A DNA stretch of 6,848 nucleotides, taken from an archaeon. Its GTDB lineage: Archaea; Asgardarchaeota; Hermodarchaeia; Hermodarchaeales; Hermodarchaeaceae. Of this stretch, positions 1 to 6,848 are shown one piece after another (positions within the stretch are counted from its first letter, which is position 1; the number at the start of each line of letters is the position of its first letter). The translations under genes and the position numbers were made by a program. Location: assembly GCA_016550405.1 (NCBI GenBank), contig JABXGX010000263.1:1-6848 (forward strand), written 5' to 3'. A model generated the notes under the pieces. That model made no database searches and was not told where the DNA came from. It worked only from the letters and a program-made list of their open reading frames with translations.

Positions 1-1497
1 GGCATCGGGTTCTCTGGAATTCTTCAACCCAATGGAACCGATGGCTGGTACTCTACCACATTCCAAGTTGAAGCAATCACGGTGGGCACATATACAATTA
101 CGCTTCGGGCTCAAATCGCTGCGTACGAAGATGCAACTGCACAAGTTCTGCTTTATGTCGCTCCTCAACCGACCAGTGCTACCCTCATTGATGCATACAC
201 AACAGATCAGGCAGGGCTTAGTAACAATAGCATCACCGATTTCGACACCTTACAAGTGCCTATTAATGATCTATTAGTTCTAACCTTCAATTACTCAGGG
301 CTTTGGAACCAACTTATTCCCAATGCAACCGCACAAATCAGTTATCAAGTTGGCTTCCAATCCATTCAATATATCGGCAATGGTCTCTACCGAGTTATCA
401 TCAATTCCAGTACAGTACCCATAGGATCCTACTCTGCGGCTGCTGGATTCTCAGGACAAAATTATGAAATATCTATTCTTAGTTTTACAATCGATGTAAC
501 TCTCATCCCAACGGAGTTATATCTGCTCAACCCGATTCTCGACACGGACTTTCATGAGCTTAATATTGGAGACCTCTTTCGAATCCGCGTTAATTTTACT
601 GATCTCGCTCACCTTACATACATTTCTGAAGCTACTTTGACTCTTGATATTCCCGGTGTGACTCTTGGCCCCATTCTCATGCAAGAAGTCGAACCAGGTA
701 TCTATGAAGCAATTGGGCTCAGTGTTCTCCTCGAAGGAGTCTGGGAACTCAATATCGTAGCCTCAAAGACGGACTACGCACCAGCCACCTTCAGGCTTCA
801 ACTTATCGTCCAAGTCCCTGAAGTCTCCCGAAGCCTCATCACCTGGGGACTTATAGCCGCTGTTATTGGCATCATCATTCTCATTGCGTGGGTTGCCTAC
901 ACCCGTGTATTTGCCATTCCTTGGCTGGTTCGAAAAATGCGAAAAATGTCAACCACTCTTGGTAAAGGAAAGATGACTAAACTTTCCAGCCGGGATCAGC
1001 GACGGATATCTAATCGGTCTGACCAAATGGGCGATATAATGCAAGACGCCTATGGCAACGCAAAAATTGCCTTTGTTGCAAGCTCTATTCCCATTGTCGT
1101 CACAATTGATGAACGAGAAGCCGAAGAAGTTGATATCTGGAATGAGCTCGATCAGCTCGAAGGTTTAGGTCGCGACCAGAAACTCGAGCTCTTTGAAGAG
1201 ATGAAACGCATCCCCGCCAAAGACCGCATCTGGTTCCTCGAAGACTTGAAACGTCAAATGGCCGACGGAACTCGCTTTAGGCGCCCATCAGCTCTCCCAC
1301 CCGAAGGACTTCTCGATAAGACTGCAGAGGAACAAATCATCCAGGCGCGTCTGGATGCGATTCCAGCGCTAAGTGAACTTGAGAAAAAAACCCTCTTCAA
1401 GCATATCAGCAGTCTCCCTCCAGAAGACCGGGACGAAGTCTTTGAAACCCTCAAAGAACAATACGACATCAGAGAAGAGGACGAAGAAGAATCATAA
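1..1497 (+). CDS. C-terminal part of a membrane-anchored Ig-like repeat surface protein (5' end outside window)
   Basis: The frame is open from base 1 and ends at TAA 1495-1497, giving 498 visible residues; the true start lies upstream, and the GTG at 82 is only an internal codon. I do not recognise a named family. Residues 1-55 end one beta-sandwich repeat (pattern GWYSTTF...VGTYTITL). Residues 56-170 and 171-273 are two further repeats of about 115 and 103 residues, each with the G-x-Y...G-x-Y/W strand pattern and NAT, NSS, NFT sequons. Residues 279-300 are a very hydrophobic helix, followed by the basic stretch WLVRKMRKM, so the tail should be cytosolic. The tail (about 198 residues) has a basic region, a short hydrophobic segment near 350-365, then two copies of a 39-residue helical module (382-420, 450-488), and ends EEDEEES. 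By analogy with similar archaeal proteins this is a surface stalk with a cytosolic partner-binding tail; that function is inferred. It is probably a paralogue of the next gene. Confidence 0.9.
   Translation, partial: GIGFSGILQPNGTDGWYSTTFQVEAITVGTYTITLRAQIAAYEDATAQVLLYVAPQPTSATLIDAYTTDQAGLSNNSITDFDTLQVPINDLLVLTFNYSGLWNQLIPNATAQISYQVGFQSIQYIGNGLYRVIINSSTVPIGSYSAAAGFSGQNYEISILSFTIDVTLIPTELYLLNPILDTDFHELNIGDLFRIRVNFTDLAHLTYISEATLTLDIPGVTLGPILMQEVEPGIYEAIGLSVLLEGVWELNIVASKTDYAPATFRLQLIVQVPEVSRSLITWGLIAAVIGIIILIAWVAYTRVFAIPWLVRKMRKMSTTLGKGKMTKLSSRDQRRISNRSDQMGDIMQDAYGNAKIAFVASSIPIVVTIDEREAEEVDIWNELDQLEGLGRDQKLELFEEMKRIPAKDRIWFLEDLKRQMADGTRFRRPSALPPEGLLDKTAEEQIIQARLDAIPALSELEKKTLFKHISSLPPEDRDEVFETLKEQYDIREEDEEES
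835..900 (+). other. Transmembrane helix of the first protein
   Basis: Visible residues 279-300 form about 22 mostly aliphatic residues (LITWGLIAAVIGIIILIAWV plus AY) with no charge. It is directly followed by a cluster of Arg and Lys (LVRKMRKM), so by the positive-inside rule the repeats are outside and the C-terminal tail inside. It is the only such segment in the visible part, which gives a single-pass type I layout. Confidence 0.92.
1144..1464 (+). repeat. Two tandem 39-residue helical modules in the cytosolic tail
   Basis: Copy A is encoded by 1144-1260 and copy B by 1348-1464, separated by 29 residues rich in Pro, Arg and Glu. They align without gaps with 13 of 39 identical residues by hand. 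The shared skeleton is L-D at positions 2-3, L8, K13, L-F at 16-17, P24, D-R at 27-28, E33, L-K at 35-36 and Q38. Each copy reads as two amphipathic helices joined by an I/L-P-x-K/E-D-R turn (KRIPAKDR, SSLPPEDR). I cannot name the fold. A duplicated helix-turn-helix module on a cytosolic tail suggests a protein-protein docking site; this is inference. Confidence 0.72.
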
Positions 1498-1539: not shown

Positions 1540-1647
1540 GCATTTCACGATGTGTACTAATAATTCACAGACAATTATCTTAACCGCGCATTTCAGGAAA
1601 TGCATTTAAAGCATAATTCGAGGAGTCTAGTGCACACACTGCATTTC
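1540..1647. repeat. Cluster of GCATTTC heptamers around the promoter
   Basis: The heptamer GCATTTC occurs at 1540-1546 and 1588-1594, inverted (GAAATGC) at 1597-1603, and again at 1641-1647. The middle two form a perfect 7-bp inverted repeat with a 2-base spacer. A fifth near-copy (GCATTTA) at 1602-1608 runs into the TATA-like box, forming the palindrome AAATGCATTT (1598-1607). Four exact copies in 108 bases is far above chance for a heptamer. The dyad overlaps the BRE position, so it is a reasonable operator candidate for a dimeric regulator; no binding protein can be named. Confidence 0.55.
1596..1610 (+). promoter_or_regulatory. Candidate archaeal promoter (BRE plus TATA box) of the giant gene
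   Basis: GGAAA at 1596-1600 resembles the purine-rich archaeal BRE, and TTTAAA at 1605-1610 serves as the TATA box. Archaeal transcription normally starts about 25 bases downstream of the TATA centre, which predicts a start near 1632 and a leader of about 60 bases. Other AT-rich stretches (1556-1583, 1665-1670) lack a good BRE or lie too close to the start codon. The call rests on motif and spacing only. Confidence 0.5.
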
Positions 1648-1693: not shown

Positions 1694-1786
1694 ATGAAAT
1701 CCCGACATATAACACTTTTCACGCTATTTGTTTTGATAGTGCCTCTACTTATACAACCAATTCTAATTACTCCGGCTATATTGAGC
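1694..1786 (+). other. Signal peptide of the giant protein
   Basis: The N-terminus MKSRHITLF has Lys and Arg at residues 2 and 4, followed by a hydrophobic stretch to about residue 30 (LFVLIVPLLIQPILITPAIL). This is a Sec-type signal. The cleavage site is uncertain: after A28 or near A37, where the Ser-rich linker begins. No twin-arginine or lipobox motif is present. An uncleaved anchor cannot be excluded. Confidence 0.85.
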
Positions 1787-4700
1787 ACAAATCACTTGAA
1801 CGCTTTATCATCCTCAAGTGGTATATCAACCCCGAATAGTGCTAACAGCTCACCTGCTTTTCCAAACGGTCCAGTTCCTCCATCACCAGGATGGAGCGGA
1901 CTCGGTGACAATCAACCAGTCATCGAATCTGCAGAAGGAATCAATTCCTACCAATATGTAGATTTGATCTCTAATCCAAATGCATCAATTGACTTACCAG
2001 AATATTGGCAAGGGAATTATATAGAAATCGCTGTTTTCTATTTACAAGATCAGCAAGAATGGATTTCTGATGGTGGCTTCCCCACAGGTTCAGGAGGGTC
2101 TTCTGGATCTTGGGTTTACGATGAGGATGACCGAGCTACTAGTAATATTGCGGGGTCATGGGTTTCAAGTGGCCCCAGTGGCGCAGGGGCCTGTGTTTAT
2201 GTTGAAATGACCATGGGTGGCGGGAGTGCAACTTTTGCTACGGGCGAATATGGGCGTTGGAGTAGCTCTTTTCAGGTACCAAGAGGGAGTGTCACTTCTG
2301 CTCGGTTGAATTTTGATTTCTTTCCAAATGATGTAATTGAACGTTCTGAATTTGAAACATACGTTGAGATTGAAGGAACCGATGTGTGGGTTCGCCATAT
2401 GAAGTATTTCAGAGATAATGGCCTCGACGAACAATGGAATCATGCGAATATTTCGATTGGAGATCCCTGGAATATCTTTGATTTAATTAACGACCCACAG
2501 GTCACAATGCGGTTTGGTATTCGGTTTGCATCAGGCGGTGCCACATACACAGGCTGGTCTGATATTAATCGTATGTATTTCGATAATATGTCTCTGTCAA
2601 TTCAAGCAGAGACACGCCCAGAATATCACGAACTTCAGCTCCGTGATACACAGGGCATAGTTCATGATGTCAACAATACCAGTCCAACAGCGTGGGGAGT
2701 TGGACAAGTCAACTTTTCTACAACAGTCGGTCCTGCTCCTCCCCCACTTTATGCAACTTACGATTTTGAATTCCTTTCAAACATCACCTCTCCTCAATCT
2801 GGTTCGCTTGTATGCAATTCAACTGTCCAAGCGACATTGGCAACAGAAACCGATGTTGCGTCATACGATGCAGAGAATGCAGTGCCAATCAACTGGTCGC
2901 TAGTGTATGATCCTTATATGGACGTATATAACCAACCTGTTGGTGATGGACCTACTAAGTACACACGGGATTACTTCAATCTAACAATTCCCTTAGATTG
3001 GACCATTTCCGCTGTATTAGATGTGAATAGTGTAAATCGGAGTGGTCCAGGAGAATATGAAATTTATCCTTTAGGGGCTCGAAATGTTGTTGTTGTGAAT
3101 GTTACTCTGATTGATATCTACTATCCTTACACAATAATCGCTACTTCAATGAATTACGTTCTCGACATCGATATCTTCGATGCTAGCTCTCCAGGTACGC
3201 CAGATTCTGAGTTTCGAGCAGGAGATACACCTAGGGTTAATGCGACAATTAGTGATGATCCCGATGGTGTTTATTCTGGAAATGCAACGTTGACAATATT
3301 GGCACCCGATCTGACCGTATGGTATACTGAAGTCAAAGAAGTGAATGCGGTTAATCAAGGGCAAATCACTTTTGATGGAATTCCTTCGCTTTTAGGAACC
3401 GGTCAAGTGGGTGTCTTTGAAGTTACTGTGAGCTGGGATAACAGTACTGTAACTAGTGGTGCCACTGAAGTAGGAGGAAACATCGATGCCTTTACTGTGA
3501 CACATGCAACAAGTCTATCTCGTTATGGTATGGGAAGTAATGTCCCTGTCTTTCTCGGAGAGGAAGCAATTATTCGTGTTCGCTTTGTTGACACCGATGC
3601 TAATCAGGGTGTTTGGTCTGCTGATACTGCTGTTTGGAATATCAGTGAAGTAACATGGACAATCAGTGGTTCTTTTATTGACTATGGTGGCGGTATCTAT
3701 GTTGGAGAAATTAATACCACAACAGCTCCTGATTATGGCGCATATTCGTGTACTGTCACTCTAAACAAATCATATTATGATCCGCAAATCCAGTTGCCTC
3801 TTTTCACTATTGAAATCACTAAACACACCACACTTGACTCACCTCAAGCTCCACGGGTGTCGGTGCCTTTTGGGGAAGATATCTTAATTGAGCTTACTTA
3901 CAATGACACCAGTTCTATTCCTGCAGTTCCCATTGATAATACGGCTCCTGATATCCAAGTGACTTGTGATTGGGATACTATCTCAGGAGGAACTTATACG
4001 GGTCCCACCTATTCTTCAGGAAAGGGGATGTGGGAGTTTACTCTTCACACGACAGGTATTCCAGTAAATAGCTATGATGTCACATTCACTGCAAATGCGA
4101 CAGGGTATGAGTGGCAGCAAATTAAAATTGAGGTGAATGTTCGTAAACATGCCACCGATCTCGTTGTATATCCGCCTGCAGCCACTCCTTGGAATGAAAA
4201 TACCAGCATTGAGATTTATTTGACAGATGCGGATTTGAGTATTCCAATTACAGGAAATGTGTCTCAAATAACAATTCAAACTTCGCAGGGTACATTCATT
4301 TATGATTCGTCTAATTGGGCGCAATATGTCACAAATGGATCTGCTGGAATTTACTTCATTAATGTTACAACTGATGGCTGGTCCATTGGTGCATACAATG
4401 ATAACCTTGTAAGTGTCACTATGGGTGCGTGGCACCTCCCGGTTTCCAGGACTGTCGATATTACGGTGCGACAGCTCAATACGATTCTCACTTATGAGCC
4501 ACCTCAAAACACGCCTTGGGGTAATGATGTTAATATCAACCTCTTTTATACCGTATTTGATGCTGCAAGCCATCATAATGGTGAAGGAATTCTTCCTGCA
4601 GTAGATGTAACTGTAGATTCCTTAACGGGTGGTTGGACATTAGATCCATCTGATTATGGGGTGGTTCATCTCGGCTTCGGTCAATATTTACTAACAATTG

Positions 4701-6848
4701 ACGCATCTGCCTTTCCTGCGATTCAATCTTACTCTATACAGGTTTTCATCAGTGAAACTTCCACAGGCCGATACGCCGATGCACAAACACCAGCAATTGG
4801 CTTTGCCATTCGAACTACTTTCACCGAGCTTACTTACACACCACCTGATCCGGTGGCTTGGGCATCAAATAGCTCAATCATAGTGTTGTATAGAATTAAT
4901 GATGATCTCAGCTCTCAAAACGGTGATCCCATCCTCGGAGCTCCGTTTGAAGTCTTGGGAGTGGGATGGACCCTCCCTGGAACGAATTATTGGGTAAAAG
5001 AACTTGGTAGTGGTTATTATCAAATTTTAGTTGACACTTCGGCGGTCACTGGACCTGGAGCTTGGAGTGTTAATATTTCAATCAATTGGCCAGCTTCACC
5101 GCCAATCTATCAGGAAAGGTATGTAATTCCAACGATGACCGTGACAACTCGGGCAACCATCGTGTCCATTTCTTATGGAACTAATGTAGACTATGGCTCC
5201 AATATCACAGTCAATCTTTACTACATTGACGTTGCCACCGACTCAAATGTTGATAACGTAACTGAAGGTCCCTATGTTCGAATCACCGTTTACAATACGA
5301 CCTCCGGGCTTCTACTATCTGATGCAATCCATTGGATTTTTGGACCTGGACCCCTATTCACAATTGAAATCAACACTAGTGCCTTTGCAAACGTGAACAC
5401 GTTCCACTCATTTACCATTAATGCTTCATGGGTAGCTGGTAATCCACCATTTTATGACTCAGCTGTAGCCATTGCCACAGTCTATGTAGTTGGAACAAAA
5501 ACTACTGTGACATACATTCCCCCAGAACCTCAACCAATAGGCGATGACCTGATTTTCATTATATATTATAATGCCACAGATACAGGTCTTCCAATTGACA
5601 ACTCATCAGGTTATGTAGGTCTTGTTGCTTCATGTGTCAATTATCCTGCTTTAACCTTGATCTATACAGTTCAAGAAATCAACGGCGGACTGGATGGGTA
5701 TCGTCTAATAATCTCAACCTCAAACTTTCCCAATCTGGGTCAGTATACCTTCCGAGTCAATGTCACTTGGCCAATAAATCAAGAACCCTTCTATGCCTCT
5801 CAATCAATCCTAATGGGTGGTTATGTACGTGCAATTCACACTTCCCTTACCTGGGAACTTCCAGGAGCTCTTTATTGGGGAGATAATCTAGTTTTCCTTG
5901 TAACCTATTATGATGTAGATCATAGCATTGCACTCTATGATCTAACGAATACTACAATAACCACCTGGATTAGTTGGGCTGGCTGGTCGGTTTTACAAAT
6001 CTTACCGAATGGCACCTATCAAATTCAAGTACCGACATCCAGTGAAAATGTAGGCTTGGCTAGCTTCACCATACGTTTCTCAAGCAATTTCTATGAAACG
6101 CGACAACAACTCGTCCAAATAACAATCAATCCCTTGCCCCAGTTTGTCAGCATTTTATCCACCTCACCTTGGACAACAGAATATGCGGGTGAAGTGGTCG
6201 TAACTGTTCAAATTCTTGATATCTATGGGCGGCGAATCAATGATTCAACGGTCACTTATCACTGGGGTGGTTTTCCTTCTGCACCAATGGTCTTTCTGGG
6301 TAATGGCATTTACAATGTTTCATTTGCTGCAAACCATGATGTTGGAACATGGATTGTCTCAGTTGAATCTGTGAAGACGAATTGTCAAACAGGGATTGGA
6401 TCAGTTACTCTTTACATCCTGCCAACAGACACAATTCTCACTCTCCTAACTCCCACAATTATAACCGTGGTTGGATCCAGCTTCGTTATCTCTGCGAATT
6501 TCAGTACCGCTGATGGAAATCCGATTATTACAGCCACTCTTCTATATGTGTGGGCAGGTGGTAATGGTTCGCTCACACATGTGGGGCAAGGCATTTACAA
6601 TGCAACCATTGGCAGCCTTGGATTAGAGTTAGGTCAATTCAGTCTCTATGTTACCGCAAGTAGTCCCAATGCGATTGAACGCTTCAATATAGTCAATGTA
6701 TTTCTGGTAGTCATTCCCACGGATTTGTCTCCAACCGACACAGTCATCGCTGAATATTGGGGTACAAACTTTACAATCAACGTCTATTTCAACGACACTT
6801 TCCACAACACGCCTATCACTGGAGCAAACGTGACCTACTTCTGGGGCA
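1694..6848 (+). CDS. Giant exported Ig/MG2-like repeat surface protein (3' end outside window)
   Basis: One frame runs from ATG 1694 to the right edge without a stop: 1718 codons, C-terminus missing. I do not recognise a named family. In order: signal peptide (about 1-31); Ser/Pro-rich linker (37-69); a beta-sandwich with a GSGGSSGS loop (about 105-305) ending in YFDNMSLSI, as in carbohydrate-binding jelly rolls; a connecting beta-rich region (306-482); an MG2-like domain (483-603); then ten Ig-like repeats starting at residues 604, 711, 819, 928, 1042, 1153, 1268, 1381, 1481 and 1578, and the start of another at 1676. There are over 40 N-X-S/T sequons by eye, only six cysteines and very few lysines, as expected for a glycosylated exterior protein not held by disulfides. 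No catalytic motif was seen. By comparison with gene 1, the missing end probably holds a membrane helix and cytosolic tail. A role as stalk, adhesin or envelope component is inferred. Confidence 0.93.
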   Translation, partial: MKSRHITLFTLFVLIVPLLIQPILITPAILSTNHLNALSSSSGISTPNSANSSPAFPNGPVPPSPGWSGLGDNQPVIESAEGINSYQYVDLISNPNASIDLPEYWQGNYIEIAVFYLQDQQEWISDGGFPTGSGGSSGSWVYDEDDRATSNIAGSWVSSGPSGAGACVYVEMTMGGGSATFATGEYGRWSSSFQVPRGSVTSARLNFDFFPNDVIERSEFETYVEIEGTDVWVRHMKYFRDNGLDEQWNHANISIGDPWNIFDLINDPQVTMRFGIRFASGGATYTGWSDINRMYFDNMSLSIQAETRPEYHELQLRDTQGIVHDVNNTSPTAWGVGQVNFSTTVGPAPPPLYATYDFEFLSNITSPQSGSLVCNSTVQATLATETDVASYDAENAVPINWSLVYDPYMDVYNQPVGDGPTKYTRDYFNLTIPLDWTISAVLDVNSVNRSGPGEYEIYPLGARNVVVVNVTLIDIYYPYTIIATSMNYVLDIDIFDASSPGTPDSEFRAGDTPRVNATISDDPDGVYSGNATLTILAPDLTVWYTEVKEVNAVNQGQITFDGIPSLLGTGQVGVFEVTVSWDNSTVTSGATEVGGNIDAFTVTHATSLSRYGMGSNVPVFLGEEAIIRVRFVDTDANQGVWSADTAVWNISEVTWTISGSFIDYGGGIYVGEINTTTAPDYGAYSCTVTLNKSYYDPQIQLPLFTIEITKHTTLDSPQAPRVSVPFGEDILIELTYNDTSSIPAVPIDNTAPDIQVTCDWDTISGGTYTGPTYSSGKGMWEFTLHTTGIPVNSYDVTFTANATGYEWQQIKIEVNVRKHATDLVVYPPAATPWNENTSIEIYLTDADLSIPITGNVSQITIQTSQGTFIYDSSNWAQYVTNGSAGIYFINVTTDGWSIGAYNDNLVSVTMGAWHLPVSRTVDITVRQLNTILTYEPPQNTPWGNDVNINLFYTVFDAASHHNGEGILPAVDVTVDSLTGGWTLDPSDYGVVHLGFGQYLLTIDASAFPAIQSYSIQVFISETSTGRYADAQTPAIGFAIRTTFTELTYTPPDPVAWASNSSIIVLYRINDDLSSQNGDPILGAPFEVLGVGWTLPGTNYWVKELGSGYYQILVDTSAVTGPGAWSVNISINWPASPPIYQERYVIPTMTVTTRATIVSISYGTNVDYGSNITVNLYYIDVATDSNVDNVTEGPYVRITVYNTTSGLLLSDAIHWIFGPGPLFTIEINTSAFANVNTFHSFTINASWVAGNPPFYDSAVAIATVYVVGTKTTVTYIPPEPQPIGDDLIFIIYYNATDTGLPIDNSSGYVGLVASCVNYPALTLIYTVQEINGGLDGYRLIISTSNFPNLGQYTFRVNVTWPINQEPFYASQSILMGGYVRAIHTSLTWELPGALYWGDNLVFLVTYYDVDHSIALYDLTNTTITTWISWAGWSVLQILPNGTYQIQVPTSSENVGLASFTIRFSSNFYETRQQLVQITINPLPQFVSILSTSPWTTEYAGEVVVTVQILDIYGRRINDSTVTYHWGGFPSAPMVFLGNGIYNVSFAANHDVGTWIVSVESVKTNCQTGIGSVTLYILPTDTILTLLTPTIITVVGSSFVISANFSTADGNPIITATLLYVWAGGNGSLTHVGQGIYNATIGSLGLELGQFSLYVTASSPNAIERFNIVNVFLVVIPTDLSPTDTVIAEYWGTNFTINVYFNDTFHNTPITGANVTYFWG
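1802..1900 (+). other. Ser/Pro/Asn-rich linker after the signal peptide
   Basis: Residues 37-69 are low complexity: SSSSG, then repeated Pro, Ser and Asn (SPAFPNGPVPPSPGW). This should be an extended and possibly O-glycosylated spacer between the signal peptide and the first folded domain. Confidence 0.7.
2006..2608 (+). other. N-terminal beta-sandwich domain, jelly-roll-like
   Basis: Residues about 105-305 differ from the later repeats. They contain alternating hydrophobic strands, a Gly/Ser-rich loop (TGSGGSSGSW), the paired strand pattern SSSFQVPRGSVTSARLNFDF, and a closing YFDNMSLSIQ. A final strand of the form F-D-N-x-S-L is common in carbohydrate-binding modules and discoidin-like jelly rolls. 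This suggests the distal tip of the stalk binds a glycan or another surface, but the fold is inferred from pattern only and the binding residues cannot be picked out. Confidence 0.45.
2609..3139 (+). other. Connecting beta-rich region of unknown fold
   Basis: Residues 306-482 are rich in Val, Thr, Asn and Tyr with many sequons (NNT, NFS, NIT, NST, NWS, NLT, NRS, NVT). A proline run (GPAPPPLY) marks a hinge near residue 350. The segment does not follow the period of the later repeats, and may hold one or two degenerate beta-sandwich domains. Confidence 0.4.
3140..6848 (+). repeat. Array of Ig/MG2-like protein repeats
   Basis: Units start near 3140, 3503, 3824, 4148, 4475, 4817, 5150, 5495, 5834, 6134, 6425 and 6719 (cut by the edge). 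Each opens with a strand such as T-x-L-T-Y, continues with G-[ED]-x-[IV]-x-[IV]-x-[LV]-x-[YF], has a central G-x-G-x-Y-x-[IV] strand, then a G-x-Y/W-x-[VF]-x-[VI] hairpin, and closes on [IV]-x-[IV] before the next unit. Units 4148 to 5834 mostly share a Y-x-P-P...P-W-G entry motif. From 5834 onward the units shorten to 97-100 residues, and units 6134, 6425 and 6719 carry a Y-x-W-[GA] motif. DNA identity between units is low, so the duplications are old. Confidence 0.8.

What the first reader, a model, noticed from the sequence alone, without database searches (positions are those of the whole stretch)
1694..6848. A single open frame of at least 1718 codons encoding a giant surface stalk
The frame covers three quarters of the window with no stop, has a signal peptide and about eleven complete beta-sandwich repeats, and still has not ended. 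It is easy to overlook because it lacks a stop within the window, so stop-to-stop or complete-gene callers may drop it and report only short shadow frames in its place. Proteins of this type in uncultured archaea are largely undescribed.
Basis: partly seen in the sequence, partly recalled or inferred. Interest (0 to 1): 0.7.

Follow-up and report, generated by a model that had tools for sequence, protein, structure and literature searches.

The report
Giant Asgard surface receptor, shared tail
The long reading frame is most of a real 2,202-residue surface protein of a Hermodarchaeia (Asgard) archaeon: a jelly-roll head on a rod of about 14 immunoglobulin-like domains, crossing the membrane once to an undescribed internal tail that its giant relatives share, so it looks like a long-reach cell-contact receptor rather than a mere stalk.

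Summary
Confirmed: 1694-6847 is one open frame (1,718 codons) with eleven complete beta-sandwich repeats and part of a twelfth. The protein ends outside the window: a near-identical complete copy (P0001; 3 differences over the 1,718 residues) has 2,202 residues: signal peptide, jelly-roll head, about 14 repeats, one membrane helix, a 187-residue cytoplasmic tail. The named tail matches are 8 loci in 4 Hermodarchaeota-labelled MAGs.
The unexpected part is the tail: a basic juxtamembrane segment plus two 42-residue three-helix modules, usually better conserved than the outside, shared by the neighbouring paralogue in the window, by 3-6 matches in each of four Hermodarchaeota MAGs, and by giant Thorarchaeota-type proteins. 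Strong matches occur in 50 of 227 genomes of the phylum (23 of these gave rows to the profile); all 33 of 89 database hits that bear an organism name are Asgard. Pfam, NCBIfam and PDB gave no convincing family for it.
Heads vary (one Thorarchaeota class inserts an NHL propeller) and the gene looks mosaic at a repeat boundary. Best reading: a long-reach adhesion or recognition receptor with exchangeable heads and a constant internal base. Function is inferred, untested.

The parts
1694..6848 (+). 5' 78% of the giant gene: residues 1-1718 of 2202 (complete in P0001)
1592..1610 (+). putative archaeal promoter: TTCAGGAAATNNATTTAAA (BRE-like CAGGAAAT + TATA-like ATTTAAA; element names recalled), conserved before the gene in the same position in two other Hermodarchaeota contigs
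   Evidence: L003 10686-10704, L004 1494-1512; L083/L011 and L013 are the same places refetched
1694..1774 (+). signal peptide (about residues 1-27, cleavage site not determined)
1931..2626 (+). [not shown]
   Evidence: in A5 18 of the 19 other rows share the domain's D-N motif, L083 (UP type) does not
2627..3148 (+). head domain D2 (residues 312-485), beta-rich, poorly modelled (pLDDT mostly 33-68)
3149..3505 (+). repeat R1 (residues 486-604)
   Evidence: structure only; the repeat HMM gives only a non-significant partial hit there
3506..6712 (+). repeats R2-R11 (residues 605-1673), each 97-114 residues: 3506-3814, 3815-4141, 4142-4468, 4469-4810, 4811-5149, 5150-5491, 5492-5827, 5828-6127, 6128-6418, 6419-6712
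   Evidence: E 3e-9 to 3e-30; R3-R11 are training units
6713..6847 (+). first 45 residues of repeat R12
6110..6110 (+). apparent mosaic breakpoint (residue 1473, five residues before the R9/R10 boundary): upstream closest to P0002, downstream closest to P0003/P0004
1..1497 (+). 3' part (498 residues) of the upstream paralogue UP: last beta-sandwich repeats, membrane helix (about 832-903) and the same type of cytoplasmic tail (907-1494); complete ortholog about 1,410 aa in L003/L083

Best explanation
It is a giant single-pass (type I) cell-surface receptor/adhesin of a Hermodarchaeia archaeon. SHOWN by sequence and models: signal peptide, jelly-roll head, about 14 tandem Ig/macroglobulin-like domains, one membrane helix, a basic juxtamembrane segment and two tandem three-helix modules in a 187-residue tail; a tail family shared by several giant proteins per genome in Hermodarchaeota and Thorarchaeota-type genomes; variable heads. 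INFERRED: after export the rod holds the head some 50-60 nm from the membrane (14 domains at about 4 nm each, recalled figure), where it binds glycans or partner-cell surfaces; the constant tail docks to one shared intracellular partner (membrane lipid, cytoskeleton or signalling protein), so that different heads feed the same inside machinery. Recombination at repeat boundaries swaps heads and rod lengths while keeping the C-terminal base.
For: Complete copy and its tail; strong hydropathy peaks at the signal peptide (2.46) and the membrane helix (2.56, residues 1995-2013); two weaker ones lie inside the ectodomain (1.62 at 465, 2.02 at 1581). AlphaFold model of residues 1791-2202: two beta sandwiches mostly at pLDDT 89-96, a 48-residue helix, then 3+3 helices at about 79-88. 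Ig/FnIII/MG-like matches. The two tail modules of P0001 are a tandem repeat: score 39 against -11.6+-8.7, 0 of 2,000 shuffles. Conservation gradient against P0003: head 20-22%, R10-R13 83-91% (R14 65%), tail 79-92%; in 52 Thorarchaeota-type proteins mean pairwise identity is 0.70-0.71 in the tail and 0.54-0.57 outside. Same tail, different heads: UP with an unlike head; NHL-propeller heads in 18 of 18 hits of 2,850-2,910 aa. 49 N-glycosylation sequons against 23.5+-4.4 in 500 shuffles. Cultured Ca. [quoted passage not shown]
Against: No ligand, no partner and no expression data. The head is not clearly like one ligand-binding family: D1 has pLDDT 47-85 and its best matches tie with other folds. 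The segment between the membrane helix and the first module is modelled poorly (pLDDT 53-67). In 18 NHL-type proteins the tail excess is small or absent (0.54-0.63 against 0.50-0.60), and against P0002 the tail (71-92%) overlaps the ectodomain range (56-82%). Not every module pair is clearly alike: the P0010 pair is reached by 50 of 2,000 shuffles. Neighbouring genes that I scanned are housekeeping types (tRNA synthetase, enoyl-CoA hydratase, nitroreductase, CoA ligase and others; 10 proteins), so context names no partner.
Confidence: 0.65

Rival explanations
1. A structural cell-envelope protein: the giants form a fuzzy protein coat in place of an S-layer; the tail merely anchors or spaces them.
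For: Ig-type domains also match S-layer proteins SbsC, Sap and SlaB (4uid, 9g93, 8qox); a cultured Asgard lacks an ordered S-layer but carries unordered surface densities (passages); several giant copies per genome.
Against: A conserved 187-residue internal tail with repeated modules is more than an anchor needs; heads diverge strongly and carry optional propellers; the head is the least conserved part against P0003-P0006 (not so against P0002).
Confidence: 0.2
2. A signalling or trafficking receptor whose main job is inside: the tail recruits sorting or signalling proteins, adhesion being secondary.
For: Tail conservation and modular tail repeats; of 70 short proteins (121-496 aa) that match the tail profile the 11 that I read look like cut-off, split or chimeric genes, so no free-standing tail protein was seen.
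Against: No signalling domain recognised by Pfam or NCBIfam in the proteins scanned.
Confidence: 0.12
3. A macroglobulin/complement-like trapping protein (tandem MG domains).
Against: No thioester-type G[CS]xEQ motif in P0001; rmsd over several domains is about 6-27 A, so only single domains match; other Ig folds lie within 1-2 Z in the same lists; a cytoplasmic tail is foreign to that family (recalled).
Confidence: 0.03

Closest known systems
Bacterial Ig-like adhesins (invasin/intimin Big_1/Invasin_D3 type; giant adhesins such as SiiE)
   Same: Long rods of ~100-residue Ig-like domains with a distal binding part; the relative P0009 has one repeat above the Pfam cut-off for Invasin_D3 (48.7 against 33 bits); SiiE 2yn5 and invasin 1cwv appear in the fold lists.
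   Different: Single-pass membrane helix with a large conserved cytoplasmic tail instead of an outer-membrane barrel, sortase motif or type-1-secretion end; no homology over the whole protein found.
Eukaryotic single-pass adhesion receptors with Ig/FnIII ectodomains (RPTP-mu, contactin, Dscam type)
   Same: Works-like resemblance: jelly-roll/MAM-like head, Ig/FnIII rod, one membrane helix, internal tail (RPTP-mu 2v5y is the top Foldseek hit of the head model).
   Different: No sequence homology shown; tail without a recognised relative; whole-chain alignment is poor (TM 0.19 by query, rmsd 23 A), so this is analogy only.
S-layer and cell-surface Ig proteins (SbsC, Sap, SlaB)
   Same: Tandem Ig-like domains at the cell surface.
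   Different: No S-layer anchoring domain recognised; variable head and conserved internal tail.
Giant proteins of Thorarchaeota annotated as hypothetical protein or '6-bladed beta-propeller' (71 of 89 hits are 2,500-2,999 aa; P0010, P0053 and others)
   Same: Homologous tail, repeats and head; two such genes in tandem in the 7 Thorarchaeota-type loci that I fetched.
   Different: Arranged as overlapping or abutting pairs; one length class carries an NHL propeller; tails are about 20-25% identical to a Hermodarchaeia tail.

Membership tests
Giant Asgard surface-receptor family defined here (Hermodarchaeia + Thorarchaeota type) | membrane helix + basic juxtamembrane segment + two or more three-helix tail modules | tested here: met
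   P0001; A2/A3 profile matches. The window ends before this gene's own tail; its UP gene shows one directly.
Giant Asgard surface-receptor family defined here (Hermodarchaeia + Thorarchaeota type) | tandem ~100-residue Ig-like repeats in the ectodomain | tested here: met
Giant Asgard surface-receptor family defined here (Hermodarchaeia + Thorarchaeota type) | N-terminal jelly-roll head | tested here: met
   not shared by the UP paralogue
Bacterial Ig-like adhesin (invasin/Big clan) | repeat matches a Big/Invasin Pfam model above its cut-off | tested here: inconclusive
   P0001: no Pfam family at E<=0.01; relative P0009: Invasin_D3 48.7 bits, cut-off 33
Bacterial Ig-like adhesin (invasin/Big clan) | outer-membrane barrel, LPxTG sortase motif or type-1-secretion end | tested here: not met
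   no LPxTG; the C-terminus is a membrane helix + helical tail
Alpha-2-macroglobulin / thioester proteins | thioester motif (GCGEQ type) | tested here: not met
   no G[CS]xEQ in P0001
Alpha-2-macroglobulin / thioester proteins | MG-type beta sandwiches | tested here: inconclusive
   [not shown]
S-layer protein | forms an ordered lattice | not testable with these tools
   -
Carbohydrate-binding (CBM-like) head | jelly-roll fold with a ligand site | tested here: inconclusive
   [not shown]
Adhesion receptor coupled to the cytoskeleton | tail binds actin or an actin linker | not tested
   needs biochemistry

The most novel reading that the evidence does not exclude
Asgard archaea possess their own transmembrane adhesion-receptor system: long Ig-rods with exchangeable heads outside, all plugged into one Asgard-specific intracellular tail that couples surface contact to the Asgard cytoskeleton or membrane-remodelling machinery, i.e. 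a pre-eukaryotic analogue of integrin/cadherin-type outside-inside linkage, and the identity of part of the unordered surface densities seen on cultured Asgard cells.
Probability: 0.2. Interest if true: 0.88.

Novelty: new variant of a known kind. Interest (0 to 1): 0.56.

Why it matters
Asgard archaea are the closest known prokaryotic relatives of eukaryotes; a cultured one shows actin-filled protrusions and unordered surface proteins but no ordered S-layer (PMC9834061, PMC12993045, passages), and the passages I read do not say which proteins these are. This family supplies named candidates, several per genome in the lineages that have it, with a conserved intracellular handle that can be expressed and used as bait to find what lies beneath the membrane. 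That makes the question 'how do Asgard cells couple outside contact to the inside' directly testable.

Tried and rejected
Whole-genome search of the window's own genome: none held. Pfam on the clipped frame: only a sub-cut-off SpaA hit, E 0.24; on the upstream gene only BET (0.063) and Glycophorin_A (0.35), both below cut-off. PDB by sequence: none for the window protein at E<=1; for the tail profile best E 0.025 to a PKC-binding protein coiled coil, then 0.19 PcfF, taken as chance. Pfam on 28 tails: scattered weak hits (best E 0.0007 RecX_HTH1; BET and Arg_decarbox_C in 5 of 28 each, YqbF_HeH in 3), no family in most members, taken as generic helical hairpins; cut-offs were shown for the first member only. 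NCBIfam: nothing for P0001, P0010 and the UP ortholog; P0053 only a sub-cut-off NHL model. Rfam, tRNA and tandem-DNA-repeat scans: nothing. Sigma-70/terminator scan of 1400-1800: nothing, and unsuited to archaea. First genome-contig scan with the whole protein: no relative. Genomes outside the phylum were not scanned (no handle to reach them); restriction to Asgards rests on the two database searches, which see only relatives sharing short words and of similar length. Neighbouring genes as functional partners: rejected, housekeeping types. Weak phylum-wide hits: I looked again at 16 of the 82 weak genomes and read 20 loci; by eye 19 of 20 show a membrane helix followed by a basic P..[VI]R-type segment, only some show modules, so I do not count them as members.

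Literature: Hermodarchaeota 21 papers, 15 listed, PMC8163825 searched for adhesion/surface terms, nothing relevant (passages); Asgard archaea + adhesin + immunoglobulin-like 0; Thorarchaeota + surface protein + immunoglobulin 2, one opened (PMC11573180, passages: about 23 Asgard proteins of 5,000 aa or more, this family not described in the passages shown); Asgard + archaea + giant proteins + cell surface + adhesion 1, not opened; Asgard archaea + Ig-like domains 5, 4 listed, not opened; Lokiarchaeum ossiferum + surface structures + protrusions 2, both opened (passages); Asgard + archaea + integrin + extracellular + cytoplasmic tail 3, one opened (PMC10846614, passages, no Asgard adhesion receptor mentioned in them); Thorarchaeota + beta-propeller + cell surface 0; Asgard archaea + surface proteins + transmembrane + repeat domains + adhesion 0; Asgard archaea + adhesin 19, 12 listed, titles and abstract starts seen, one opened and irrelevant. 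The library is open-access PMC only, so a description elsewhere cannot be excluded.
Full report
OBSERVATION. The frame at 1694-6847 is open for 1,718 codons from ATG; the other five frames over the same stretch carry 75-135 stops, and the chance of such an open frame by composition is about 10^-42. A search of 5.8 billion proteins returned 11 relatives (7,993 candidates scored). P0001 is the same protein complete, 2,202 residues on a 32,157-base contig, with 3 differences in the 1,718 shared residues. The clipped window therefore holds 78% of the gene.

ORGANISM. No genome is held for the window. A profile of the tail (A2) found 8 loci in 4 MAGs of the GTDB species genomes: Candidatus Hermodarchaeum yapensis, two labelled Candidatus Hermodarchaeota archaeon, and one labelled archaeon isolate H03M_Hermod_104. 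Of the 11 relatives four bear organism names, all Promethearchaeota lineages. The window is from a Hermodarchaeia archaeon or a close relative (inference).

ONE TAIL, MANY HEADS. The upstream gene in the window (1-1497) ends in the same tail (56% identical), but its complete ortholog (about 1,410 aa) has a different head. In Hermodarchaeota one contig reads enoyl-CoA hydratase - UP - gene in our position (L083/L003), another reads gene in our position - THIRD paralogue - nitroreductase (L075/L001), L002 repeats our position - THIRD and L004 UP - our position; the whole order was not seen on one contig, and the gene in our position is only 42-60% identical over the aligned parts (25% for the N-terminal end in L004), so orthology rests on position and best hit. 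Against this simple order, L084/L008 has a THIRD-like tail, not ours, before THIRD. In L077 a single giant stands between the enoyl-CoA hydratase and the nitroreductase, with a first part like THIRD (38% over residues 26-1596) and a C-terminal part that also matches ours (34% over 863-2102). Four Hermodarchaeota MAGs have 6, 5, 5 and 3 tail matches with A3 (9, 6, 7 and 4 rows with A2, where some are two pieces of one tail). Over the phylum the narrow profile A2 hits 39 of 227 genomes, the broader A3 132 of 227 (28 rows). By my count of that table 50 have a best E below 1e-30, and 23 of these 50 contributed a row to A3; 82 are weaker. Genomes are incomplete MAGs, so misses are not absences, and the match table was capped. 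In all 7 Thorarchaeota-type loci that I fetched two giants lie in tandem, overlapping or abutting; the 3 junctions printed overlap by four bases (L067, L069, L079). Frames reach 4,069 and at least 5,794 residues in the fetched loci, and 7,129 and 5,894 in the search table. With the Thorarchaeota tail of P0010 as query 89 proteins of 1,377-2,900 aa matched among 1,733 candidates; 33 carry an organism name, all Promethearchaeota lineages (28 Thorarchaeota, 3 Promethearchaeota, 1 Odinarchaeota, 1 Lokiarchaeota). 52 are 2,540-2,640 aa and 18 are 2,850-2,910 aa; all 18 carry NHL repeats in the precomputed Pfam column, and in A5 the propeller sits inside the jelly-roll head. A profile search for short proteins found 70 of 121-496 aa; 15 have organism names, all Promethearchaeota lineages; the 11 that I read look like cut-off, split or chimeric genes.

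EVOLUTION. Against P0003 identity rises from 20-22% in the head to 83-91% in R10-R13 (65% in R14) and 79-92% in the tail; against P0002 it is 63-82% from head to R11, 56-68% in R12-R14 and 71-92% in the tail. Scanning 766 informative sites puts one breakpoint at residue 1473: 528 P0002-like to 74 P0003-like before, 36 to 128 after; 0 of 2,000 site shuffles reach the statistic. Shuffling ignores linkage, so this is strong but not a formal recombination test, and an assembly chimera is not excluded. In 52 Thorarchaeota-type proteins the tail is better conserved than the outside (0.70-0.71 against 0.54-0.57), in 18 NHL-type ones hardly (0.54-0.63 against 0.50-0.60).

FUNCTION. Shown: architecture, homology, conservation pattern. 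Inferred: contact or recognition at tens of nanometres from the membrane, with a common inside partner. The reported absence of an ordered S-layer and presence of unordered surface densities in a cultured lokiarchaeon (PMC9834061, passages; review PMC12993045, passages) fits but does not prove it; that organism is from another class, and I did not search its genome. In unnamed weaker-hit genomes I mostly saw only the juxtamembrane-type segment.

REGULATION. A 19-base BRE/TATA-like element at 1592-1610 is conserved before the gene in the same position in L003 and L004, while much of the stretch between it and the start codon differs: our gene probably has its own promoter.

VERDICT. Observation confirmed, interpretation widened: a member of an undescribed family of giant receptors found in Hermodarchaeia and Thorarchaeota-type Asgard archaea. 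The kind (Ig-rod surface protein) is known; the constant tail and its association with such giants is new to the libraries searched (Pfam, NCBIfam, PDB).

Noticed in passing
window 6110 (residue 1473): Apparent mosaic breakpoint at the R9/R10 repeat boundary: N-terminal two thirds closest to P0002, C-terminal third closest to P0003/P0004.
   Followed up: partly
L067 1946-10642, L079 668-9331, L071: An NHL six-bladed propeller is inserted inside the jelly-roll head of the first gene of the Thorarchaeota-type pair; the first gene in L069 lacks it, so the insert is optional.
   Followed up: partly
L047-L066: Surface proteins in other Asgard genomes end in a membrane helix followed by a basic P..VRKIRK..KKIRKGKK-like segment, often close to the C-terminus (19 of 20 loci by eye): a possible Asgard cytoplasmic anchor motif.
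   Followed up: partly
L080 2617-19998, L081 1298-13504: Far larger tail-bearing proteins: at least 5,794 residues with 41 repeat hits (frame 7,129 aa), and 4,069 residues with 27 repeats.
   Followed up: no
L077 9089-15325: One hybrid-looking giant where other Hermodarchaeota contigs have two or three: first part like the THIRD paralogue, C-terminal part also like ours.
   Followed up: partly
window 1592-1630: BRE/TATA-like promoter conserved in three Hermodarchaeota loci; in all three a GTCTAG follows within about 15 bases.
   Followed up: partly
window 1-1497: Upstream paralogue with the same tail and an unlike head; complete copy in L003, nearly complete (cut by the contig end) in L005.
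   Followed up: partly
P0158 (contig of 179,721 bases, the same length as that of P0003): A 157-residue protein that is the tail of a UP-type gene, probably a split or mis-called gene beside P0003.
   Followed up: no
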